The notes beneath the pieces were generated by a model. It was not told the DNA's origin. It worked only from the letters and a program-made list of their open reading frames with translations, and searched no databases. From positions 1 through 64,000 of the forward strand of contig JAFYAV010000002.1 of assembly GCA_017540545.1 (NCBI GenBank): DNA of 64,000 bases, written 5' to 3'. Shown here in pieces: positions 41,018-52,328 of the stretch (position 1 is its first letter; the number at the start of each line of letters is the position of its first letter). Position numbers and translations under genes: made by a program. The stretch comes from Candidatus Saccharimonadota bacterium (GTDB lineage Bacteria; Patescibacteriota; Saccharimonadia; Saccharimonadales; Saccharimonadaceae).

Positions 41018-41033
41018 GGACACGAGACTTGCA

Positions 41034-41064
41034 AAAAAATACCCCATAACAAGGGGTATTTTTT
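41034..41064 (+). terminator. Intrinsic terminator after rpsH
   Basis: AAAAAATACCCC at about 41034-41045 pairs with GGGGTATTTTTT at 41053-41064. It separates the ribosomal operon from the type VII locus. Confidence 0.88.
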
Positions 41065-41177
41065 GTAGGTGCAAGCCTAAACCTCAGTTTTATATCATAA
41101 AGGAAAGTGCAAACTCCGAAGCATATGTGGTATTCTTAATACAAGGAAGGAGGTAGAACTAACATTTCGAAGATTAT

Positions 41178-41540
41178 ATGAAAGAAGACGAGGAAGTGGG
41201 GGCCGCGATAAACGAAACGGAACTCGAAAATCTAAGTAGCGAAGTTTTAAACTACCGTAGGAGAATACTCAAAATTCTAAAAAGAGTGGATTCTTCAATG
41301 AATAGACTTAAGCGTAGCTATCAAGGTCCGCCTAGTTCGAAAATTATCGACAATTATGCGGAAATAAGAGAAGCATACCCGATAGTACAAGAAAATCTCA
41401 AAAACTATTCGGACGATTTCTTAGCCTTGATAGAAAAAATGCGCAATAATGAAAAAATCCTGAGCAATCTATACTTAGAATTTTCCGACAGAATCCAACA
41501 GCAAATCAATAATAACGATATTATGGATATATATAAATAA
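41178..41540 (+). CDS. Helical type VII locus protein, 120 aa
   Basis: This is the first gene of the type VII-like locus. The product is acidic at its N-terminus and then mostly long helices (EVLNYRRRILKILKRVDSSMNRLKRSYQG, read in parts), like the helical-hairpin accessory proteins of Ess systems. There is no WXG motif and no signal peptide. The in-frame ATG at 41178 is 25 nt from the only strong ribosome binding site (GGAAGGAGG, 41144-41152), so translation initiation here is unusual. A promoter with an extended -10 (TGGTATTCT) lies upstream at about 41131-41136. Confidence 0.65.
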   Translation: MKEDEEVGAAINETELENLSSEVLNYRRRILKILKRVDSSMNRLKRSYQGPPSSKIIDNYAEIREAYPIVQENLKNYSDDFLALIEKMRNNEKILSNLYLEFSDRIQQQINNNDIMDIYK

Positions 41541-41550
41541 AGGAGCATGA

Positions 41551-41865
41551 ATGAAACTAGCAATGGAACAGGCCACCATAGGCTACAGCAGAACAGGCGT
41601 AAACAGCCTAATGGAGAACATCAAAGCAAATGTAATTGATGACGCAACAAAACAAATGGAAGACGGCCTTAAAGACCTCGAGGACGCAATTGATGCAATA
41701 TGGGTAGGAAAATCGGCCGAACAATTCAAAGAAAATATGCGCAATGATAATAGAAAATTGCGCGCCGCAATGCAGCAGGTCTACCTAAGCATAAACGGCG
41801 AGACCAAAGAAGTTGGTCGTCAAATGGCACATGTAGACGAACAGTTAGTAGAAAAACGCGCATAA
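41551..41865 (+). CDS. WXG100-family protein, 104 aa
   Basis: Proteins of this family are the small secreted substrates or chaperone-like partners of type VII secretion. The 104 residues form a helix-turn-helix hairpin with W51-V52-G53 at the turn, in IDAIWVGKSAEQF, the defining WXG motif. The C-terminal half ends in a charged helix. The start has AAAGGAG upstream. It lies between other small helical genes in the same operon as the EssC-like ATPase further down. Confidence 0.85.
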   Translation: MKLAMEQATIGYSRTGVNSLMENIKANVIDDATKQMEDGLKDLEDAIDAIWVGKSAEQFKENMRNDNRKLRAAMQQVYLSINGETKEVGRQMAHVDEQLVEKRA

Positions 41866-41880
41866 TAAGGAGAAAGAAAA

Positions 41881-42348
41881 ATGGCAATCAAAGATGCAAT
41901 TACAGAAATTCAACATGCGGTAGAAGACGTAAACGCAAACGTAGATAGCGCAAACTCCAAAATACAGCAATCTATGCAGGCCTCCGGAAATGCTCTTTCC
42001 TATGGGCTAGACTTTGCCGGTATGGACGAAGCTAATATTTCTAAATTCCATGATGCGTTAGCGACATATCAGGTCAGAGTAAACGCAATCTTGTCCGGGT
42101 TGAACGCACAAAAGGGGCCAATTGAAGAAGCCTTTAAGGGCGAAGGATTAACTAATAGCATACAAACATTCTTCACCAACGCAAAGACTCTTCTGACAGC
42201 CTACGTAAAAACCATTGAAGTCGAAGAGAAATTAGTAATTGAGGCTAATGAAAACTGGAAAAAGGCCTCCGGAAGCCTTTCGACCGACATTACCGAAGAC
42301 GCCAATACTCTTCGCGCAGCCGCTGAAGGACTAGTGGTAGAGGAATAA
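41881..42348 (+). CDS. Helical type VII locus protein, 155 aa
   Basis: The 155 residues are almost entirely helical, with a central AQKGPIEEAFKGEGLTNSI loop and a final NWKKASGSLS segment. The length and helical content resemble the longer Ess accessory or LXG-chaperone proteins, but no canonical motif is visible. The start follows AAGGAGAA. It overlaps nothing and is followed one base later by the next gene. Confidence 0.65.
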   Translation: MAIKDAITEIQHAVEDVNANVDSANSKIQQSMQASGNALSYGLDFAGMDEANISKFHDALATYQVRVNAILSGLNAQKGPIEEAFKGEGLTNSIQTFFTNAKTLLTAYVKTIEVEEKLVIEANENWKKASGSLSTDITEDANTLRAAAEGLVVEE

Positions 42349-42349
42349 T

Positions 42350-42661
42350 ATGGCTTCAATTGATGGGTATCGAAGCGATATTCGCGATTATCATGACATC
42401 GAGGATAAGCTGAACAAGATAATCGAAGACCTAGATTCGGCATCGCAAAACGCAAAACGAATAAGTTACGAGGTAACTAATAACTATCGCATCGACGGTA
42501 ATTCTACGTCTATTGCGGATCGCGCCGATACCCTCAATAGTGATATAGATGAACTTAAAGAGCGACTTAGGCATAAGATAATCCCAGCCATTCATGACGC
42601 AATCTCCCATTCTTGGCGGGAAATCGAGAGGTTAGAAGAGGAAGAAGATGAAGATGATTAA
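42350..42661 (+). CDS. Helical type VII locus protein, 103 aa
   Basis: The protein has two long helices separated by a NYRIDGNSTSIADR turn, and a very acidic end (EEEEDEDD). The architecture is similar to DUF5082/YwqH-type proteins of type VII loci in Firmicutes, though I cannot confirm the family. Its end overlaps the following WXG100 gene by 14 bases, implying coupled translation. Confidence 0.65.
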   Translation: MASIDGYRSDIRDYHDIEDKLNKIIEDLDSASQNAKRISYEVTNNYRIDGNSTSIADRADTLNSDIDELKERLRHKIIPAIHDAISHSWREIERLEEEEDEDD

Positions 42662-42938
42662 ATATGCAGATACGGACGAGATGCGAGAAGTCTCAACCGA
42701 ACTGAAAGCGCTCGCCAGTGAGCTAGATGGCGAAATCAATATGCTTTATTCGCGCCTCTCTGAAGTCCCTACAATATCAAAGGAATGGGTGGGGAGCAAG
42801 GCGCAATTGTACTTTCGGCTCATATCTTATGACAAATGGCAATATATTAGCCTCTCGGATCATATATCAAGACTAGGCAATGAAATACTTCGAGAGGCAA
42901 AAGAGCTCGAAACGAGCATAAACAAGGATAAAAGGTAA
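42648..42938 (+). CDS. WXG100-family protein, 96 aa
   Basis: The 96 residues have the WXG100 helical-hairpin layout with W47-V48-G49 in SKEWVGSKAQLYF. An ATG six bases later (42654) is an alternative start. The AGAGGAAG sequence upstream lies in the previous gene. A second WXG100 protein in one locus is common, because these proteins often form heterodimers such as EsxA-EsxB. Confidence 0.85.
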   Translation: MKMIKYADTDEMREVSTELKALASELDGEINMLYSRLSEVPTISKEWVGSKAQLYFRLISYDKWQYISLSDHISRLGNEILREAKELETSINKDKR

Positions 42939-42945
42939 TTAAGCT

Positions 42946-43254
42946 ATGAGTAGAATGAATTACCCGGACCAAGAATTATACACACAAGTGAACACTATGG
43001 TTGAAGATTGCTCGCAGGCACTAAAGAATGCAGCATCAAAATGCTCATTTGACGTACCGTCAGACTTCGATTATAAACACGACTTGTGGGAGCTCCAGAA
43101 TGAAATATGGTCACTGCACAATGATTTAAAAGATATCAAAAATGCAATATTAAGTGCAGACTTCAGATACAATAACATAGCAAAAGGTGCATCGGAAAGA
43201 ATAGATGCAATGAAAACTCCGAAAATCAAAGCATACGGCAGAATGATTCGTTAA
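42946..43254 (+). CDS. Helical type VII locus protein, 102 aa
   Basis: The protein is helical with an ELQNEIWSLHNDLKD coiled-coil-like core and a basic end (KIKAYGRMIR). It has no WXG motif but is of the same size and fold class as its neighbours. Two cysteines near 23 and 33 may matter. It is followed two bases later by the acidic repeat gene. Confidence 0.65.
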   Translation: MSRMNYPDQELYTQVNTMVEDCSQALKNAASKCSFDVPSDFDYKHDLWELQNEIWSLHNDLKDIKNAILSADFRYNNIAKGASERIDAMKTPKIKAYGRMIR

Positions 43255-43256
43255 AA

Positions 43257-43751
43257 ATGGATAGCGACATACTATACATAGACCACCACAACCCCGACCC
43301 GCCGGTACGTTATTCAAGTGCAGATGAGGAGGCAGTCGAGAATAGCGACGGCTCCACAAATGCTAACGATATTATTGATCCAATCGTAGATGATCAAGCG
43401 CCCGAACAGAACGATTCGGTAGCGGAGTCATCCGATCAAACAACCGAACAGAACGATTCGGTAGCAGAGTCATCCGATCAAACAGTCGAGAAGAACGACC
43501 CGATTGGGTCGTCTGACGAACAAGTCATTACGACCGACGAAGCGACGGAAATGAAGGAGGACATTTCGACTACCGCCGAAAGCGACAAACAAGAAGAGGA
43601 AGCCGCACCGAAAGAGGCTAACACTGAAGACCATACGCCAGATCCTTTTGATGAAATCCAGCTAAAAATGATGGGATACCCCCTTCCAACACCAGAGGTA
43701 AGTAACTTAAAGCCCCCATTACCTCCTAATGCTAATAGTGAAACAAAATAA
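43257..43751 (+). CDS. Acidic, low-complexity repeat protein, 164 aa
   Basis: The protein is unstructured and acidic, rich in Ser, Asp, Glu, Gln and Pro. It contains two exact copies of a 14-residue unit (EQNDSVAESSDQT plus one) encoded by a 42-bp direct repeat, then partial copies, and ends with a proline-rich PLPTPEVSNLKPPLPPN tail. There is no signal peptide. In type VII loci such disordered proteins can be secreted substrates or tethers. It closes the first operon of the locus. Confidence 0.7.
   Translation: MDSDILYIDHHNPDPPVRYSSADEEAVENSDGSTNANDIIDPIVDDQAPEQNDSVAESSDQTTEQNDSVAESSDQTVEKNDPIGSSDEQVITTDEATEMKEDISTTAESDKQEEEAAPKEANTEDHTPDPFDEIQLKMMGYPLPTPEVSNLKPPLPPNANSETK
43402..43485 (+). 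repeat. Tandem 42-bp direct repeat
   Basis: Two adjacent copies, 43402-43443 and 43444-43485, nearly identical, encoding two copies of the EQNDSVAESSDQ unit in the acidic protein. Such coding repeats can expand or contract by slippage. Confidence 0.85.
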
Positions 43752-43756
43752 AAAAT

Positions 43757-43785
43757 CTCCGGGGAACACATCCCCGGAGGTTTTT
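43757..43785 (+). terminator. Intrinsic terminator of the WXG100 operon
   Basis: CTCCGGGGA at 43757-43765 pairs with TCCCCGGAG at 43771-43779, followed by G and five T residues. A run of A residues on the other side makes it likely bidirectional, serving the lipoprotein gene too. Confidence 0.88.
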
Positions 43786-43814
43786 AGTTGCGAGAGTCGG
43801 GCGGCCTAGATGGC

Positions 43815-44297
43815 TTACTCGATGGGGGACCAGATGGTGACAATTCCGTACGAAGTCTCCACTTCGCCAACTTCCTGCATCAGCTCTCCGAGCCTCGCGA
43901 GCTCTTCTCCGGTGACACTTTTGGCGTCAATGCCAGTCAGATCATAGGCGTCGAACCGGTTTCCAATCTCGAAGCCTAAACCGTCGTTGCGATCTTTATC
44001 GTAAAATTTCGCACCCGACATGTCATCGTAATACTGCACTTCGTAATGCTCGACGATGCTCTGACCCACGTCTCCGCACGCAGCAGCCAGCTCCTGATCG
44101 TTCTTTAAACGATCGACGAAGATTCTGGCGTCTTCGGGTTTAAATATGTAACCCGCGTAAAAGCTGCGCGGTATCACTACGTTACCCCCGAGCGGATCGG
44201 CTGTCTTCTGGTCGCCCGCAGTGGCTGCTCCACATGCAGTAAGGCTGATTCCCAACAGTACACATACAAAGATCAACAGTTTTTTCAGATTTCTCAT
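43815..44297 (-). CDS. Lipoprotein, 160 aa
   Basis: A lipoprotein signal peptide is clear: MRNLKKLLIF, a hydrophobic stretch and the lipobox LTAC with the cysteine at residue 22. The mature part is an acidic domain of about 138 residues with one further cysteine and a YYDDMSGAKFYDKD segment; I do not recognise it. The start has GGGAGGG upstream and a TGATATAAT -10 box (44335-44340). It is transcribed against the type VII genes and divides the WXG100 operon from the ATPase gene. Confidence 0.8.
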   Translation of the reverse strand: MRNLKKLLIFVCVLLGISLTACGAATAGDQKTADPLGGNVVIPRSFYAGYIFKPEDARIFVDRLKNDQELAAACGDVGQSIVEHYEVQYYDDMSGAKFYDKDRNDGLGFEIGNRFDAYDLTGIDAKSVTGEELARLGELMQEVGEVETSYGIVTIWSPIE

Positions 44298-44334
44298 TTA
44301 TTTGCCCTCCCAAAAAATAATTACTGTTAAACGT

Positions 44335-44340
44335 ATTATA
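44335..44340 (-). promoter_or_regulatory. Extended -10 box of the lipoprotein gene
   Basis: TGATATAAT on the minus strand, with a TTGCAT -35-like hexamer 17 bp upstream at 44358-44363. The distance to the start codon is 37 nt. Confidence 0.7.
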
Positions 44341-44416
44341 TCACAAATTTGCAAAAAATGCAATAGTAAAATATTTATGGTAATCTATTCTCTTTCGCGC
44401 TTGTTATGCTACTAAG

Positions 44417-44445
44417 TTGATAAATGCGCTATCTGACTATATAAT
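44417..44445 (+). promoter_or_regulatory. Promoter of the EssC-like ATPase operon
   Basis: TTGATA at 44417-44422, a 17-bp spacer and TATAAT at 44440-44445. The leader of about 50 nt ends in only a weak GGTGG site. The region 44298-44502 otherwise shows nothing further. Confidence 0.7.
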
Positions 44446-44502
44446 ATATACGTAAGCAATATAGTATTTCGATCTAGTAATGATATGTTTGGTGGCTAGT
44501 GA

Positions 44503-47500
44503 ATGATTGTACATATTTTCAATGAAAGAGTAAACGTCGTTAAAGAGCTATCCTTGACGGCTAGTAGCATGTACCCAATTCATGTTGACGGAAAAATAAT
44601 AGCCAACATTATTTCTGATGTAGACAGCTGGACTATGAAGACCACCGAGGGCTACTATAGCCCCGAAGCCGTCAAAGACACGGTAAAATTACAGCAGTAC
44701 TATATATACAACGTAATATGCGAAAAAACAAAAGAGGTTTTTTATGTAGTAGTCGTAATGCGCTTCTTCTCCGACGCGCAAGTATATGCCACACCAAGCA
44801 AGCTTATAATAGGCAATACTCCGGCCTGCGATATATGTTTACCAGTAAAGAATTCTAAGCGCGAAAGCCTAAAACTAATGTTAACAGACGATGGCTGGGT
44901 GGCCGAAACGGATTCTCGATGCTTTTTTGCATCTAGGACGCGCATAACAAATGGGCGCAAAATCTTGTGCGGCGATAGCATATTTTACTACGGGCTTAAG
45001 ATAATACTATTACGAACATCATTTATACTCTGTAGCCCAAAGAAATTTATAAAGCTAGCGCCACACATTAAACCAGCCGGGCCAGAACCAAATTATATCC
45101 CACAACAAAACGAAAACAGTAATTTCGACTACGACACCCCGCTGTATGGCGAAAACGACTACTATTACAAATCGCCACGCTTCAATTACACAATTGAAGA
45201 GGTCGAAATGGTAATTGATGAGCCTCCGGCAGCAGAACAACCCAATAACCTACCGCTAATCGTAACTATCGGTCCTCAGATCACGATGGCTATAGCATCC
45301 GCATTGTCGATACTAAGCATGACAATGATAGTGTCGTCAGGAGCCAACGACGACGCAAGAATGGCCATATCGATCACAACTATGGTTATTACGATGGTTG
45401 GAGCGCTAACGTGGCCAACTGTAAGCCGAACAATAAACAACAAAAGAATCAAAAAACGAGAAGAGAAACGCCAAACAAAGTACCACGCATATCTCGAACG
45501 AAAGAAAAAACAAATTGATGCAATTAAGCAAGAACAGAAGAAAATTCTATCAACAAATAACCCGACAATCAAACAGTGCGAACAAATTATCGACACCCAA
45601 AATGAGCGGCTTTGGCAACGCAATATAGATCACGGCGATTTTCTATCAATACGTCTGGGGACTGGCAATGTCAATACGCGCCTTATATTGAGCGAACCGA
45701 AAGAAAAGTTTTCGGTAGAAGACGACGACAACCTTAACCTAGAATTAAAACAAGTAATTAAAGAATCTCGCCTAATTCCCAATGCACCAATTACCTACAA
45801 CTTCACAAATCACGTAATCGACGCCGTTATTGGCGAAAATGACTCCATGAAGAGCTTTATGGATTGCGTATTTTTGCAAATGTTGTCGTTTCACTCGTAT
45901 GCGGACTTAAAAATTGTCGTATTTACTACTGAACCAGAGAAATGGGATTACCTAAAGATAGCGCCGCACTGTTGGAACAATGAACACAGTACAAGATACT
46001 TCGCTACTACCATCGAGAAACTAGCATCAATTTCCGGAGAGTTGGAAAAGATATTTGATGCACGCAAAGCTAATGACGAAGAGGAAAAATTAGAAGACGA
46101 CGGCGAAGAGCAAGGCGATAATATTAGTTTTAAGGATTTTAAACCGTATTACCTCTTCTTTATAGACGATATGACGGCGGTACGAAATGTTAATTTGATT
46201 AGTAAAATTCTATACTACAAACGCAATATCGGGTTCTCTATAATTACGTTGGCACAAAATGTGACCATGTTACCAAATGAGACGTCCGACTTTATTAGCA
46301 TTACGCGAGACCAATCCGCAATCATTACTACCGGCGTTAACGAAAGCCAGAAAATCTTCAAAGCCGACTTCAACGATAATACCGTTGATATGAATATATG
46401 TACGCAAAAACTAGCAAACATTCCCATAAAAATAGAAAAAGGACGTTTTGAGCTACCTAAGTCCATATCTTTCCTTGAATTATACGAATGCGGACGCGTG
46501 GAGCAGCTAAATGCACTTGCGCGCTGGAAAGAAAACGACCCCTCCGTCAGCCTTTCGGTCCCTATAGGTATCGATCAAAATGGAGAGATATTCCGTATGG
46601 ATATTCACGAAAAGGCTTATGGACCGCACGGTCTTATCGCCGGAACGACAGGTTCAGGTAAATCCGAATGGATCATAACATATATCCTTTCGCTAGCGGC
46701 AAATTTTAGCCCCAACGAACTACAATTCGTACTAATTGACTATAAGGGCGGAGGGCTAGCCAAAAGCTTCGAGAACTCCGAGATGAAGATAAAACTACCT
46801 CACCTTGCAGGGGTAATTACGAATTTGGACAAATCGGAAATATTCCGTTCGATGGCGGCAATTGAATCTGAGCTCAAGCGTAGGCAATCTATGTTCAACA
46901 GTGCTCGCGAAAAAATGCACGAAGGGTCGATGGACATATATAAGTATCAACAATACTTCCGCAGAGGTCTTGTCAAAGAACCACTGTCCCATCTATTAAT
47001 TATCTGCGACGAGTTCGCTGAGCTTAAGCAACAAGAGCCCGATTTTATGGACCAGCTCATATCGACATCTAGGATAGGACGCTCGTTAGGCGTTCATCTC
47101 ATACTGGCAACCCAAAAACCAAGCGGGGTAGTGAATGAACAGATATGGTCAAACTCTAGATTTAAAGTAGCCCTAAAAGTCCAGAACAAGAACGATTCGA
47201 ATGAAATAATTAAAAGACCAGACGCCGCTTTTCTAAAACAGACAGGTTCATTTTATATGCAAGTCGGAACCGACGATTACTTCAACTTAGGTCAAGTTGC
47301 CTGGTCAGGCGCTAAATACTATCCATCCAACACGGCGCGACGCAAAATAGATGAGTCAGTTCAGCTAATTGACGACATTGGACGAGTTGTTAACACCCTA
47401 AAAAATCAAGAGGCAATAGAAGATCAAGGAGAACAGCTGTTCAATATAGTTGCCTATTTGTCTGACATTAGCAAAAAGACAGTCCTTCTTAGTCGCCCTA

Positions 47501-49068
47501 TGTGGCTTTCGAATATTAAGCAAAACTCACTTCTGTCAGAAATTAAGCAAAAATACGGCATCCTAGCTGCAAAAAAATACACCTACAATACACTTATTGG
47601 CGAATACGACGAGCCACGCAGGCAAGAGCAGGGTGCGCTCCAAATTGATTTGGCGGCAGGCAACATTGCCATTATCGGCAAAGCAGACGGCAGCATTGAG
47701 CGGCTAATATCGGCCATCATATGGTCTAGTATATGTGACCATACGCCAGCAGAAATTGCATATTATATATTCGATTTCGGGTCGGAAACGATGAAGAAAT
47801 TTGCGAAATTCCCACAAGTCGGCGAAGTTGTATTCCAAGACGAAACCGATAAAATATCAGGGACATTAAGCCTAATCGCCGAAGAAATAGAAAACCGAAA
47901 GGATATATTGTCAAACTACAACGGATCTATAGATTACTATAATAAAACCGAAACAGAAAAAATGGGCATTATCGTAGTAGTTATCAATAACTACGATATT
48001 CTCTGCGAATCTTTGCCTCGAACAGTCGATTTAATAACCGACATGTTTCGCGAAGGTCCAAAATACGGAGTAATTTTCATTATAAGCTCAAATACCAACA
48101 ATGCTATCGGAAGTCGCCTACTCCAGTTTTTCAATCATACGATAGTTATGCAGTTAACAGACGATTCTATGTACAGAGCAATTACGGAATGCCGTCGAAA
48201 TCTAATCCCGCGCAAAGAGGTTGGGCGAGGCATCTGCAAGCTTGACGCCAACAATAACGACTCCTATTGCGAATTCCAGACAGCAATGATTGACACTGAA
48301 GACAACGAGCTAAAGACAATCAAAGAGTATGCCGACGAGTGCGTAGAAGTATATAAATGCAAGGTGAAACAACTGGCGAAAATACCAGACGACATAGGTA
48401 GCTCCGACGTCTCTCGCCACATTAGAACGCTTTCAGATGTACCAATAGGCATTAATCTATACGAAAAGAATCTAGCATTATATGATTTTATGTCGCGCAA
48501 AATCCATCTCATATCAGGCAAAGACATCAAGGAAAACATAGGCTTCATCTATGCTCTAACGAGAATATTAACAAAAGTACCAAACATCAAAGTTAGAGTA
48601 TTTGACTTAATTGATATCTTTAAGATACCTATGTTAGACGTCCAAATGTTTGACCAAGATGCAAATACAGTTTTCGCTGCCCTAGAAAGAGATGTGTTAA
48701 CACGCACTGAGGCGCAAGACTGCGGCATTACCTTAATTATTGGCGTCGGTCAATACAAGCAAAAACTGTCACAAGCAGGCCTAGAAATATTTAGAAACCT
48801 CTTTGCGAATGTCGGAAAAAGCAAACAATCAATATACGTACTCATAGACAGCTATGAAAGTATACGAAACCTCAGGCTCGAAAAATGGTTCCACGACGTA
48901 GACGTCGAGCATGGCATCTGGCTTGGAAGAGAATTAGAAAATCAAAGCCTGTTCGAAAACATAGAGATACGAGATCAAGACAAGAAGCATAGATTCAATG
49001 GCCTCGGCTTTGTTATTTCGGACGGCGACTACCAAGTGATAAAAACCGTAATAGACAAGGATGACTAA
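44503..49068 (+). CDS. EssC/EccC-like type VII secretion ATPase
   Basis: This is the motor of the type VII-like system. The first 190 residues resemble FHA-type domains as in Firmicutes EssC. Two membrane spans follow at about 250-277 and 287-308, then a coiled linker. The first FtsK/SpoIIIE domain has Walker A GTTGSGKS at 714-721 and Walker B ending D836-E837 in IICDEFAEL. Two further FtsK-like domains are degenerate: around 1059-1063 the P-loop reads GKADG, and around 1339 it reads GKDIK, neither with a GKS/T. The layout (one active, two dead domains) matches EccC/EssC. 1521 residues is typical. Confidence 0.88.
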   Translation: MIVHIFNERVNVVKELSLTASSMYPIHVDGKIIANIISDVDSWTMKTTEGYYSPEAVKDTVKLQQYYIYNVICEKTKEVFYVVVVMRFFSDAQVYATPSKLIIGNTPACDICLPVKNSKRESLKLMLTDDGWVAETDSRCFFASRTRITNGRKILCGDSIFYYGLKIILLRTSFILCSPKKFIKLAPHIKPAGPEPNYIPQQNENSNFDYDTPLYGENDYYYKSPRFNYTIEEVEMVIDEPPAAEQPNNLPLIVTIGPQITMAIASALSILSMTMIVSSGANDDARMAISITTMVITMVGALTWPTVSRTINNKRIKKREEKRQTKYHAYLERKKKQIDAIKQEQKKILSTNNPTIKQCEQIIDTQNERLWQRNIDHGDFLSIRLGTGNVNTRLILSEPKEKFSVEDDDNLNLELKQVIKESRLIPNAPITYNFTNHVIDAVIGENDSMKSFMDCVFLQMLSFHSYADLKIVVFTTEPEKWDYLKIAPHCWNNEHSTRYFATTIEKLASISGELEKIFDARKANDEEEKLEDDGEEQGDNISFKDFKPYYLFFIDDMTAVRNVNLISKILYYKRNIGFSIITLAQNVTMLPNETSDFISITRDQSAIITTGVNESQKIFKADFNDNTVDMNICTQKLANIPIKIEKGRFELPKSISFLELYECGRVEQLNALARWKENDPSVSLSVPIGIDQNGEIFRMDIHEKAYGPHGLIAGTTGSGKSEWIITYILSLAANFSPNELQFVLIDYKGGGLAKSFENSEMKIKLPHLAGVITNLDKSEIFRSMAAIESELKRRQSMFNSAREKMHEGSMDIYKYQQYFRRGLVKEPLSHLLIICDEFAELKQQEPDFMDQLISTSRIGRSLGVHLILATQKPSGVVNEQIWSNSRFKVALKVQNKNDSNEIIKRPDAAFLKQTGSFYMQVGTDDYFNLGQVAWSGAKYYPSNTARRKIDESVQLIDDIGRVVNTLKNQEAIEDQGEQLFNIVAYLSDISKKTVLLSRPMWLSNIKQNSLLSEIKQKYGILAAKKYTYNTLIGEYDEPRRQEQGALQIDLAAGNIAIIGKADGSIERLISAIIWSSICDHTPAEIAYYIFDFGSETMKKFAKFPQVGEVVFQDETDKISGTLSLIAEEIENRKDILSNYNGSIDYYNKTETEKMGIIVVVINNYDILCESLPRTVDLITDMFREGPKYGVIFIISSNTNNAIGSRLLQFFNHTIVMQLTDDSMYRAITECRRNLIPRKEVGRGICKLDANNNDSYCEFQTAMIDTEDNELKTIKEYADECVEVYKCKVKQLAKIPDDIGSSDVSRHIRTLSDVPIGINLYEKNLALYDFMSRKIHLISGKDIKENIGFIYALTRILTKVPNIKVRVFDLIDIFKIPMLDVQMFDQDANTVFAALERDVLTRTEAQDCGITLIIGVGQYKQKLSQAGLEIFRNLFANVGKSKQSIYVLIDSYESIRNLRLEKWFHDVDVEHGIWLGRELENQSLFENIEIRDQDKKHRFNGLGFVISDGDYQVIKTVIDKDD

Positions 49069-49352
49069 TGGAATATAAGGTATTAGTAGAGATATTCTTG
49101 CCAGAGATAGAAGAAAGATATGAGGCTTATATTCCTATCAATAAAACAATCGGCGAAATAGTCGACTTGCTTTTAGGTCTAATACGAAACCAACATGACG
49201 AGTTGCCAAACGACATAAAGCCAAAACTATACAATCGACACAGCTATCGGAAATATTACGGCAAAGAAGTTGTGCGCACAACGGATATTAGAAATGGAAC
49301 GGAGTTAATCATGATATTCCGCACCCCAACGGCGACGACAGAAGATTATTGA
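49068..49352 (+). CDS. YukD/EsaB-like ubiquitin-fold protein, 94 aa
   Basis: The small size, the KVLVEIFLPEIEERYEA strand pair, a central TIGEIVDLLLGLI helix and the DIRNGTELIMIF last strand match the ubiquitin-like YukD/EsaB proteins encoded beside EssC in Firmicutes type VII loci. The gene overlaps the ATPase stop by one base, so the two are made together. In other systems the protein is cytoplasmic and regulates secretion. No Gly-Gly tail is present. Confidence 0.8.
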   Translation: MEYKVLVEIFLPEIEERYEAYIPINKTIGEIVDLLLGLIRNQHDELPNDIKPKLYNRHSYRKYYGKEVVRTTDIRNGTELIMIFRTPTATTEDY

Positions 49353-49432
49353 CGGCTTAGCGATTAGTCTCCTACCCTAGATTATGCAAACCGTGCTATC
49401 ATAAAAACCAGAAGTGTAGCAAAGGAGGAACC

Positions 49433-50398
49433 GTGAGCAAATTTGACGACCAATACATAGATCTATGCCGTCGCGTATTGAAGAATGGCGAAAAAATCAC
49501 CAATTATCACAAAGGAGACAAGCGTAGCAAAGCCGCGGCCAATGCAATTCCGGATCACGCATCCCAAGCCAACACCGAAGCTTGTACTATTCGTTTACCA
49601 CACCAGGTCCTCCAATTTAACCTAGAAGAAGAATTTCCCATACTCACCTCAAAGAAAGTTGCGTTCAAGAGTGCAGTGATTGAAATACTCTGGATTTTTC
49701 AGCAAGCATCCAACGATGTAAATTGGCTACAAGAACGCGGCGTAAAAATATGGGATGAATGGAAAATCGCCGAAGATGGTACCTATCAGGGCAGAAACAT
49801 TAACCAAATCTTTTCCGAGAGCCATCCAGAAGAGCCAAAAACTAATTTTGCAGGAACAATCGGCACGGCATATGGCTGGATTGTTAATAGATACAATTTG
49901 GTCGGCAACCTCATCGAAACACTCAAGTCCAATCCTGGCAACCGCCGCATGATTATGAGTCTTTGGCAAAACGAATGGCTATCCACCGCCGCACTACCAA
50001 GCTGTGTCTGGAACTCGCAATGGAACCTCATCGACGGAAAACTAAATGTGCTCGTAGAGTCGCGTTCTACCGATATTCCGCTAGGTTTGCCATTCAATAT
50101 CGTGCAGTACGCAGTGCTATGTCACCTGATAGCGCAATCCATTGGCGCAAAACCGGGACAGTTCACCTTTATTACAAATGACGCCCATATATACACAAAC
50201 CAAGTCGATGGCATTAAAGAGCAAATCGAAAAATACGACAAAGCAAAGAAAGACGGGACGCTTCCGCCGCCACCAGAATTATGGATTAACCCAAAAGTCA
50301 AAAATTTCTACGACTTTGATAGCTCAAAAGATCTCAAAGATATCAAACTCAAAAACTATAAAAATTTAGGCACAATCAAGATGCCAGTTACGGAGTAA
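49433..50398 (+). CDS. thyA: Thymidylate synthase
   Basis: ThyA makes dTMP from dUMP using methylene-tetrahydrofolate. The GTG start follows AAAGGAGGA. The 321 residues include the catalytic cysteine C191 in LPSCVWNSQW, the dUMP-binding RSTDIPLGLPFNI region and the GQFTFITNDAHIY block. The residue after the catalytic Cys is Val, where most ThyA enzymes have His. The gene is followed one base later by folA, which recycles the dihydrofolate formed. Confidence 0.95.
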   Translation: MSKFDDQYIDLCRRVLKNGEKITNYHKGDKRSKAAANAIPDHASQANTEACTIRLPHQVLQFNLEEEFPILTSKKVAFKSAVIEILWIFQQASNDVNWLQERGVKIWDEWKIAEDGTYQGRNINQIFSESHPEEPKTNFAGTIGTAYGWIVNRYNLVGNLIETLKSNPGNRRMIMSLWQNEWLSTAALPSCVWNSQWNLIDGKLNVLVESRSTDIPLGLPFNIVQYAVLCHLIAQSIGAKPGQFTFITNDAHIYTNQVDGIKEQIEKYDKAKKDGTLPPPPELWINPKVKNFYDFDSSKDLKDIKLKNYKNLGTIKMPVTE

Positions 50399-50399
50399 T

Positions 50400-50870
50400 A
50401 TGTTTAGTATTATCGCCGCAATTGGCAAGAATAATGCGCTCGGCAAAGACAATGACCTCATCTTCCATATTAAAGAGGACATGGATTTCTTCCGAAAAAC
50501 CACTACAGGCCATAAAGTCGTAATGGGGAGCAAAACATGGGATAGCCTACCAACAAAACTAAAAAACAGGGAGAACATTGTCATTTCTAGACACAATATC
50601 CCCGAGGCAGATAAAACCGTAAATAATCTCGAAGACTATATCGCAAAGAATATCGATACTCAAGAGGAGATCTTCATTATTGGCGGCGGATCAATTTACG
50701 CACAATTTCTACCATACGCAAAGCATCTCTATCTAACGGAAGTCGACAGTGAACCCGAAGCCGATGTATTCTTCCCAGAATTCGATAAACGCTTTTACCG
50801 ACGTAAAAAAATCAAACATGGGAAGCAGGGTGAGTTAGAATACTCAATTGTCAAATACACCAAAAAATAA
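50400..50870 (+). CDS. folA: Dihydrofolate reductase
   Basis: FolA reduces dihydrofolate with NADPH. The 156 residues have the usual features: IIAAIGKNNALGKDNDL near the N-terminus, a VMGSKTWDSLP segment, the FIIGGGSIYAQF nucleotide site and a YLTEVDSEPEADVFFPEF end. The acidic catalytic residue is in the DMDFFRKTT helix. It is directly coupled to thyA. Confidence 0.95.
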   Translation: MFSIIAAIGKNNALGKDNDLIFHIKEDMDFFRKTTTGHKVVMGSKTWDSLPTKLKNRENIVISRHNIPEADKTVNNLEDYIAKNIDTQEEIFIIGGGSIYAQFLPYAKHLYLTEVDSEPEADVFFPEFDKRFYRRKKIKHGKQGELEYSIVKYTKK

Positions 50871-50895
50871 AACATCCGTGACCCAAATTAGCCTA

Positions 50896-50925
50896 TTGTC
50901 AAACATTAAAGAAAAATGTTACTAT
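50896..50925 (+). promoter_or_regulatory. Promoter of the nucleotidyltransferase-like gene
   Basis: TTGTCA at 50896-50901, an 18-bp spacer and TGTTACTAT with the hexamer at 50920-50925. The ATG is eight bases after the -10 box, so the mRNA is leaderless or nearly so. Confidence 0.65.
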
Positions 50926-50933
50926 GGCGTACT

Positions 50934-52241
50934 ATGTTTATTGCAAAACTATTTTCCGAATCAGTTTACGAGAACGATTCGGAAGCCTTCCTCGCCGCAA
51001 CGAGTGAACAGCGGGAAGCCATAAAACACCACAATTTCATAGCTCGCAAGGTATGTCAAATAATCGACCTGCCGACAGAAGAATTCGAAAAACAAACAAA
51101 AGAAGAGTTGGAAAATTTTTACGACAATCTCTCCGACATGCTCCTTGATTACCCAAGGTTAACACTCTTCGTTCCATTCTATATTCTAAAGAACGCTACT
51201 ATCAGCTTTCGTAAAACATACTTAAAGACCTGGGAAACTTGTTGCAAAATGAGCGACACTCGGGAAGAATTCAATATCGGAGATTATTATGAACCCGACG
51301 CCAGTATTGGCGAACCAGACCATGTCGCAAAAGCCGCACATCTGCTCCCGTGGTTACTTAAGTATGGCTATCTGAACGAGTCTGACATCATAAAACTCGC
51401 AAATAAATACCGGGACGACGATTCCATTGCAATTTGGGGACTTCTTGATGGCGCCGTTGCGGCAAAACAGATTGGAATCCTGAACGAAAGTGCACTCGAG
51501 CAAATTATGCAGATTGCGAAGAAAGCAAAAACAGAGTGCCCAAAGCCGCCGAAACTAATCTTGGTCACCGAAAAGCGCAAGAAATGGCTTAAAGATTTAG
51601 CTGCAAACTACGGCATTGATCGCAAAACATTCAAATTACGCAACCCCGCCGGCCCGTACAGTAGCAATATAGAACCGCAGAAAATAGACGCCGTATTGCC
51701 AACCAACAAACACGAGCATCTAATCCTGCAAGGCTCAAGGCTAAAGGGTTATAGTCGGCCCGGATCTGATTACGATTATTTTATCTACGACGACCGCGAT
51801 CATAAGATATATTCCTACGACAAAGAAAAAGGCAAAGAAGAGATAAGCTATCTAACCCAGAAACTTGAACTAGCTTCGCACTTGATACTGCTCGGAGCGT
51901 GGCTAGGCGAGAGCAAAAATGACACTTTAGCGGCACAGCGAAAAGCGGCAAGCTATTACTACAGAATGAATAAGGCCCAGCAGGCAATAGCCTTATTTAG
52001 TATCGAAAGAACCACAATACAATGTCGACTAATGCAAAAAGGTTTCCCATGCGCATATGTGGATTTATCTCTTGGAACTAAGAATCTTAATACTATCGAC
52101 GGTAGCAGTGCGTTTTATGATGAACGTATGCGTAAAATAGCAACAAAAATATGCATTAAGTATATATTCCTGGGCCGCAGAATCAGTTTAGCCACATGGC
52201 GCAAGACGCTTTCCTACACTACGCCGCCAATGATCGGCTAA
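50934..52241 (+). CDS. Protein with nucleotidyltransferase-like motif, 435 aa
   Basis: The start at 50934 is chosen because of the -10 box immediately upstream. The middle contains LQGSRLKGYSRPGSDYDYFIYDD (read in parts), the GS...SDxD pattern of polymerase-beta-type nucleotidyltransferases, with two aspartates to bind metal. The N-terminal 200 residues are helical and the C-terminal part carries two cysteines and a helical LAAQRKAASYYYRMN region. The substrate and the fold of the flanking domains are unknown. It lies between folA and rplF. Confidence 0.7.
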   Translation: MFIAKLFSESVYENDSEAFLAATSEQREAIKHHNFIARKVCQIIDLPTEEFEKQTKEELENFYDNLSDMLLDYPRLTLFVPFYILKNATISFRKTYLKTWETCCKMSDTREEFNIGDYYEPDASIGEPDHVAKAAHLLPWLLKYGYLNESDIIKLANKYRDDDSIAIWGLLDGAVAAKQIGILNESALEQIMQIAKKAKTECPKPPKLILVTEKRKKWLKDLAANYGIDRKTFKLRNPAGPYSSNIEPQKIDAVLPTNKHEHLILQGSRLKGYSRPGSDYDYFIYDDRDHKIYSYDKEKGKEEISYLTQKLELASHLILLGAWLGESKNDTLAAQRKAASYYYRMNKAQQAIALFSIERTTIQCRLMQKGFPCAYVDLSLGTKNLNTIDGSSAFYDERMRKIATKICIKYIFLGRRISLATWRKTLSYTTPPMIG

Positions 52242-52267
52242 AATCATTTACGAAACAATTTTCGCCA

Positions 52268-52296
52268 TTGTAAATGTAGAGAAAATATGATAAAAT
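52268..52296 (+). promoter_or_regulatory. Promoter of the rplF-rplO operon
   Basis: TTGTAA at 52268-52273, a 17-bp spacer and TGATAAAAT with the hexamer at 52291-52296. Confidence 0.65.
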
Positions 52297-52328
52297 ACCG
52301 AAGATATTATTAACAAAGAGGAACTATA

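What the first reader, a model, noticed from the sequence alone, without database searches (positions are those of the whole stretch)
41178..49352. Type VII-like (WXG100/EssC/YukD) locus inserted in the spc ribosomal operon of a probable Saccharibacteria genome
Seen: two WXG100 proteins (W51-V-G and W47-V-G), four other small helical proteins, an acidic repeat protein, an EssC-like FHA/two-span/three-FtsK ATPase and a ubiquitin-fold protein overlapping its stop. Known: this is the cytoplasmic half of a Firmicutes Ess/Yuk system. Not seen here: EsaA, EssA, EssB or LXG toxins. The four unassigned helical proteins may replace the missing membrane parts or be substrates. Inference: in an organism living on another bacterium's surface, such a compact system could export effectors or attachment proteins. 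I cannot tell whether it has been described.
Basis: partly seen in the sequence, partly recalled or inferred. Interest (0 to 1): 0.8.

Follow-up and report, generated by a model that had tools for sequence, protein, structure and literature searches.

The report
Compact type VII secretion in Saccharibacteria
A few gut Saccharibacteria, tiny bacteria of a group known to live attached to other microbes, carry a stripped-down version of the type VII protein-export machine, probably acquired from gut Bacilli, which lacks the usual accessory membrane proteins and is always accompanied by six small hairpin-type proteins that it probably secretes.

Summary
Window 41178-49352 encodes an EssC-family ATPase over NCBI's EssC cut-off (877.6 vs 778.4 bits) with an EssC-type N-terminal FHA module and membrane spans, a ubiquitin-fold EsaB/YukD-like protein, and six small soluble proteins (g1-g6), of which g1, g2, g3 and g5 show WXG100/LXG similarity. 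An acidic, probably disordered protein (g7) closes the first operon. The block lies between rpsH and rplF.

The essC-yukD + g1-g6 set recurs in other Saccharibacteria of two genera of one family and in gut/rumen Bacilli. The EssC tree puts Saccharibacteria as one clade beside those Bacilli, suggesting acquisition from Bacillota. Class-wide it occurs in 2 of 152 sampled genera; a phylum-wide sample found none beyond the window's own genome.

EssB and EsaA were not found in six Saccharibacteria and four Bacilli genomes; EssA has no above-cut-off hit. No small protein spans the membrane, so they cannot replace the missing membrane parts. A conserved minus-strand lipoprotein/anchored protein (43815-44297) was overlooked.

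Best reading: a compact T7SS variant exporting hairpin-protein complexes, without recognisable toxins. I found no published T7SS in Saccharibacteria or Patescibacteria in the open-access library. Substrates and function remain inferred.

The parts
41178..41540 (+). g1, 120 aa, EsxA-like (WXG100 similarity, motif Y/F-x-G instead of W-x-G)
   Evidence: 10 of 11 orthologues match PF06013, best 1.5e-4; profile hits EsxA 3zbh 2e-4; alignment
41551..41865 (+). g2, 104 aa, WXG100-like protein (W51-V-G)
   Evidence: PF06013 3.2e-5, 9 of 11 orthologues; invariant W, G; related domain in 260-808 aa reading frames of a Bacilli genome
41881..42348 (+). g3, 155 aa, LXG/WXG-like domain without toxin part
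   Evidence: orthologues match PF06013 (8 of 11, best 1.8e-4) and PF04740 LXG (6 of 11, best 1.9e-5); alignment
42350..42661 (+). g4, 103 aa, acidic helical protein, Lap-like by position only
   Evidence: conserved in all full loci; weak YwqH-like matches in 2 of 11
42648..42938 (+). g5, 96 aa, WXG100-like protein (W47-V-G)
   Evidence: 5 of 11 orthologues match PF06013, best 2.3e-5; one YwqH-like 8e-6; invariant EWxG
42946..43254 (+). g6, 102 aa, helical protein without known family
   Evidence: conserved in all full loci; no family
43257..43751 (+). g7, 164 aa, very acidic (net charge -35), probably disordered; conserved C-terminal YPLPTPE...PPxPP motif; Saccharibacteria only
   Evidence: alignment; charge; found in no Bacilli locus
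43757..43779 (.). GC-rich palindrome with T runs on both sides: likely shared terminator of the g1-g7 and g8 transcripts
43815..44297 (-). g8, 160 aa lipoprotein (LTAC lipobox); homologues anchored by lipobox or N-terminal span in seven Saccharibacteria loci
   Evidence: profile search and alignment; translation
44417..44445 (+). promoter-like site TTGATA-17-TATAAT ahead of essC (11 of 12 matches)
44503..49068 (+). essC, 1521 aa: FHA module, membrane spans about 250-310, three FtsK-type ATPase domains, only the first with canonical Walker motifs
49068..49352 (+). yukD/esaB-like, 94 aa, ubiquitin fold, overlaps the essC stop codon

Best explanation
A compact type VII secretion system. Shown: the EssC ATPase with an EssC-type FHA module and membrane spans, a ubiquitin-fold partner, and six co-inherited small soluble proteins, four with WXG100/LXG similarity, arranged as two operons. 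Inferred: EssC assembles in the single membrane, the ubiquitin-fold protein docks on it as the EccD ubiquitin-like domain does in ESX-5, and ATPase domain 1 drives export of complexes made from the six small proteins. g1, g2 and g5 would be EsxA/EsxB-like, g3 a toxin-free LXG-like core, g4 and g6 its partners. The g8 lipoprotein is the only other membrane-attached candidate. The system was probably acquired once from gut Bacilli, and its likely role is contact with a host or rival bacterium.
For: EssC over the equivalog cut-off and best PDB match YukB, 1.8e-119. FHA module matches only T7b EssC structures at E<0.001. Ubiquitin fold with EccD5 match. WXG100/LXG similarity of g1, g2, g3, g5. Module conserved in 2 Saccharibacteria genera and in Bacilli. 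Small proteins have 2-5 times higher dN/dS than EssC in the Saccharibacteria pair, as expected for exposed proteins. g1-g6 profiles find no other gene in the 99%-complete genome G163. EssC tree.
Against: No secretion data exist. EssB and EsaA, essential in T7SSb from established knowledge, are absent. g4 and g6 have no family support, and hhalign finds no significant homology among the small proteins. No toxin or other effector domain was found, so what is delivered is unknown.
Confidence: 0.72

Rival explanations
1. A full T7SS whose other membrane components are encoded elsewhere in the genome and are too diverged to be recognised.
For: Known T7SS types have extra membrane parts (PMC11217815). 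The EssC FHA module, which binds EssB in T7SSb, is retained. G000 is only 73.5% complete.
Against: EssB and EsaA profiles find nothing above cut-off in 99%- and 97%-complete genomes; EssA gives only scattered sub-threshold hits. Genes shared by two T7-positive genomes and missing from one T7-negative genome include no obvious partner; the largest is a papain-like protease with leucine-rich repeats.
Confidence: 0.3
2. The small proteins are scaffold or channel parts of the machine, not exported substrates.
For: All six are kept together as a fixed set in very different genomes, unlike variable substrates of other T7SS.
Against: No membrane span in any of them; they resemble exported WXG100/LXG proteins; faster evolution than EssC; g2-like domains lie in longer reading frames in a Bacilli genome with a single EssC.
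Confidence: 0.2
3. A DNA translocase or anti-phage system that merely uses an FtsK-like motor.
For: FtsK, HerA, SspH and mad8 models match the ATPase domain.
Against: Those matches are far weaker than EssC (FtsK 49.9 vs 877.6 bits); FHA module, ubiquitin-fold protein and WXG proteins are T7SS hallmarks.
Confidence: 0.02
4. Misassembly or contamination joining a Bacilli T7SS to a Saccharibacteria contig.
For: All non-Saccharibacteria relatives found are Bacillota.
Against: Independent genomes show the same rpsH-T7SS-rplF arrangement with 58-74% EssC identity and diverged flanks; Saccharibacteria EssC form their own clade.
Confidence: 0.01

Closest known systems
T7SSb (Ess/Yuk) of Bacillota
   Same: EssC with N-terminal FHA module, membrane spans, three ATPase domains; separate YukD/EsaB-like protein; WXG100 proteins; LXG similarity
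   Different: No EssB, EsaA or recognisable EssA; six small proteins instead of one EsxA; no LXG toxins; Saccharibacteria host; added g7 and g8
T7SSc-T7SSj (Garrett et al. 2024, PMC11217815)
   Same: TsxC ATPase, TsxB ubiquitin-fold protein and TsxA WXG100 core with subtype-specific extras; T7SSg is similarly compact
   Different: None has this gene set: no kinase, phosphatase, TsxI, TsxJ, TsxK or TsxL was seen here; T7SSg ATPase lacks FHA; described only in Bacillota and Actinomycetota
essC-yukD-g1..g6 loci of gut Bacilli (L018, L019, L021, L022, L229)
   Same: Same eight genes in the same order for the g1-g6 block, EssC 46% identical over its full length
   Different: Lack g7 and g8; the four loci read in full have a minus-strand anchored protein with a HEMxHP motif instead; D2 P-loop intact; five of these genomes carry a second EssC
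ESX (T7SSa) of Actinomycetota
   Same: EccC-like ATPase, paired WXG100-type proteins, ubiquitin-like domain
   Different: No EccB, EccD, EccE or MycP in the locus; ubiquitin fold is a free protein; EssC is fused to FHA

Membership tests
Type VII secretion system (broad) | EccC/EssC membrane ATPase | tested here: met
   TIGR03928 877.6 bits over cut-off; YukB 1.8e-119
Type VII secretion system (broad) | WXG100 (EsxA/TsxA) protein in the cluster | tested here: met
   g2 3.2e-5 and most orthologues of g1 and g2, though below Pfam's cut-off for single window proteins; W-x-G invariant
Type VII secretion system (broad) | Secretion of the WXG100 proteins | not testable with these tools
   needs an experiment
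T7SSb | FHA module on EssC | tested here: met
   model of residues 1-250 matches 9qks, 5fwh, 1wv3
T7SSb | Ubiquitin-fold EsaB/YukD | tested here: met
   fold met; sequence match to PF08817 only 0.05 in 3 of 11
T7SSb | EssB/YukC pseudokinase | tested here: not met
   no match over cut-off in 10 genomes; B. subtilis control positive
T7SSb | EsaA/YueB | tested here: not met
   no match over cut-off in 10 genomes; control positive
T7SSb | EssA | tested here: inconclusive
   only scattered sub-threshold hits in 12 genomes; family is short and diverged
T7SSc-T7SSj | subtype-specific components (kinase, phosphatase, TsxI, TsxJ, TsxL) | tested here: inconclusive
   none in the locus by ORF content and domain scans of its ten genes; not searched genome-wide

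The most novel reading that the evidence does not exclude
A genuinely minimal T7SS in which EssC is the only dedicated transmembrane protein and the six hairpin proteins themselves form the secreted assembly that reaches the neighbouring cell; it marks T7SS as a host-interaction system of Patescibacteria, acquired from gut Bacilli.
Probability: 0.25. Interest if true: 0.85.

Novelty: new variant of a known kind. Interest (0 to 1): 0.68.

Why it matters
From the open-access literature, type VII secretion is described in Bacillota and Actinomycetota, and Saccharibacteria interaction work centres on type IV pili and T4SS. A T7SS in this group gives a concrete candidate for how some gut members act on other cells. 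The gene set, without EssB and EsaA, also makes it testable which parts a T7SS really needs, and the six fixed hairpin proteins pose a clear question about what a toxin-free T7SS secretes.

Tried and rejected
Small proteins as membrane replacements: rejected, no spans. Common descent of g1-g6 by profile comparison: no significant matches, so they are grouped by similarity to WXG100/LXG and by synteny only. YukD profile against PDB sequences: nothing, so the fold was modelled. Peptidoglycan hydrolases with WXG-type N-termini in the Bacilli were first taken as substrates of this system, then not used, because those genomes have a second EssC. The 1013-aa protein shared by T7-positive genomes was examined as an EsaA-like candidate and rejected: papain-like with leucine-rich repeats by reading the sequence. 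Phage and plasmid records hold only EssC of at most 34% identity among the best listed, so no sign of a recent mobile carrier.

Full report
ORFs at 41178-43751 (seven), 44503-49068 and 49068-49352 were confirmed. The window belongs to a 795-kb, two-contig genome. Its nearest relatives are records titled Candidatus Saccharibacteria, with 94-98% identical ribosomal proteins in L013. Upstream lies rpsH with a terminator-like hairpin; downstream lie thyA, dfrA and a 441-aa gene, then rplF.

Identity of the ATPase. TIGR03928 (EssC) scores 877.6 bits over a cut-off of 778.4, against 49.9 for FtsK. The best solved relative is B. subtilis YukB, E 1.8e-119. A model of residues 1-250 (pLDDT 80) gives only three PDB matches at E<0.001, all T7b EssC N-terminal modules. 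The 0.19-0.69 identity range among orthologues over this part shows it is diverged. Domain 1 has intact Walker A and B in 11 of 11 sequences; domain 2 is degenerate in Saccharibacteria but reads GQPGSGKE in Bacilli; domain 3 is degenerate in all.

The 94-aa protein folds as ubiquitin in the model (pLDDT 86). Foldseek lists the EccD5 ubiquitin-like domain among its top three matches; the fold is common and unrelated proteins score as well, so membership rests on fold plus its position overlapping essC.

The small proteins. Orthologues of g1, g2 and g5 match WXG100 (10, 9 and 5 of 11) and g3 matches WXG100 (8 of 11) and LXG (6 of 11, best 1.9e-5). g4 and g6 have no convincing family. Profile comparisons tried between four pairs were not significant. 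None has a likely membrane span. g7 has net charge -35 and a conserved proline motif near its C-terminus.

Anatomy. g1-g7 form one run of closely spaced genes with ribosome-binding sites, ended by a palindrome at 43757-43779 that has T runs on both sides. The lipoprotein g8 converges on it from the other strand. essC-yukD has its own strong promoter-like site. g8 homologues, anchored by a lipobox or an N-terminal span, were found in seven Saccharibacteria loci and not in L017.

Distribution. Of 394 genomes sampled in the family, 11 have an EssC match at E<=1e-40, 8 of them over the cut-off, in 2 of 61 genera. Class-wide 6 of 393 genomes, 2 of 152 genera. In a phylum-wide sample of 380 genomes from 313 genera only the window's own genome rang. 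In genus g1 the block lies between rpsH and rplF wherever the flanks are on the contig (window, L013, L014, L015; L020 on the rpsH side); in genus g2 it lies elsewhere and in other orders (L017, L065). A T7-negative member of g1 has two unrelated ORFs between rpsH and rplF, so that interval is variable in the genus.

Relatives. Four gut/rumen Bacilli genomes carry essC (46% identity, full length), yukD and g1-g6. A sample of 145 genomes from the family of one of them gave 8 with g2-like proteins, several with most of the module next to it. More distant Clostridia EssC loci have yukD followed by one or two small proteins. In the EssC tree the eight Saccharibacteria sequences form one clade (SH-aLRT 100), sister to the four Bacilli sequences (100), inside Bacillota sequences. 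The tool warned of long branches; the local Saccharibacteria-Bacilli grouping agrees with identity and synteny. Direction of transfer (from Bacillota) is an inference from all other relatives being Bacillota (one carries a Mycoplasmatota label).

Missing parts. EssB (PF10140) and EsaA (TIGR03929) give nothing over cut-off in six Saccharibacteria and four Bacilli genomes while B. subtilis controls ring. EssA gives only scattered sub-threshold hits. The LXG family finds only g3 or its weak relatives. Comparison of two T7-positive genomes with one T7-negative genome recovered the locus genes but no convincing extra partner. This comparison uses a single negative genome and is suggestive only.

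Selection. Between L015 and L020 dN/dS is 0.06 for EssC (first 1047 aa) and 0.15-0.34 for g1-g7; between two Bacilli it is 0.11 and 0.12-0.21. All are under purifying selection. Between the window and L013, ribosomal proteins are 94-98% identical but g1-g7 only 35-54%, so the small proteins diverge fast.

How it probably works. Shown: gene content, folds of two parts, conservation. Inferred from T7SS knowledge: EssC as the membrane motor, ubiquitin-fold protein as its cytosolic partner, hairpin proteins exported as complexes. In T7SSb, LXG toxins travel with small helical partners (PMC11217815 and papers cited there); g3 with g4-g6 may be such a complex without a toxin. A g2-like domain occurs in reading frames of 551, 808 and 260 aa in Bacilli genome G935, which has one EssC; these were not read, so this is a lead.

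Literature. Searches for Saccharibacteria, Patescibacteria or CPR together with type VII, T7SS or WXG100 found no paper describing such a system (hits checked). The library covers only open-licence papers, so prior description elsewhere cannot be excluded. The 2024 survey of T7SS variants treats Bacillota and Actinomycetota and none of its types has this gene set.

Noticed in passing
   Followed up: partly
L018:14862-16280, L019:13352-14761, L022:5562-6983 (minus): Bacilli loci carry a roughly 470-aa single-span protein with an HEM(A/G/C)HP motif between yukD and g1; no Pfam family. Could be a surface metallopeptidase acting on exported proteins.
   Followed up: partly
L090:6219-13121, L091:5271-6191: Array of proteins joining WXG-type N-terminal regions to NlpC/P60, glucosaminidase, phage-type lysozyme or M23 domains in a gut Bacilli genome, next to three WXG100 genes; the genome has a second EssC.
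   Followed up: partly
rpsH-rplF interval, window 41018-52328; G109:C1:239163-240827: This gap in the spc ribosomal operon holds different genes in different members of the genus (T7SS, thyA-dfrA, unrelated membrane proteins), so it seems a tolerated insertion site.
   Followed up: partly
window 44503-49068, residues about 1054-1066: The second ATPase domain of EssC has lost its P-loop in Saccharibacteria while the Bacilli relatives keep GQPGSGKE.
   Followed up: partly
L116:6151-9192 (minus): 1013-aa membrane-anchored papain-like protein with leucine-rich repeats shared by two T7-positive genomes and absent from one T7-negative genome.
   Followed up: partly
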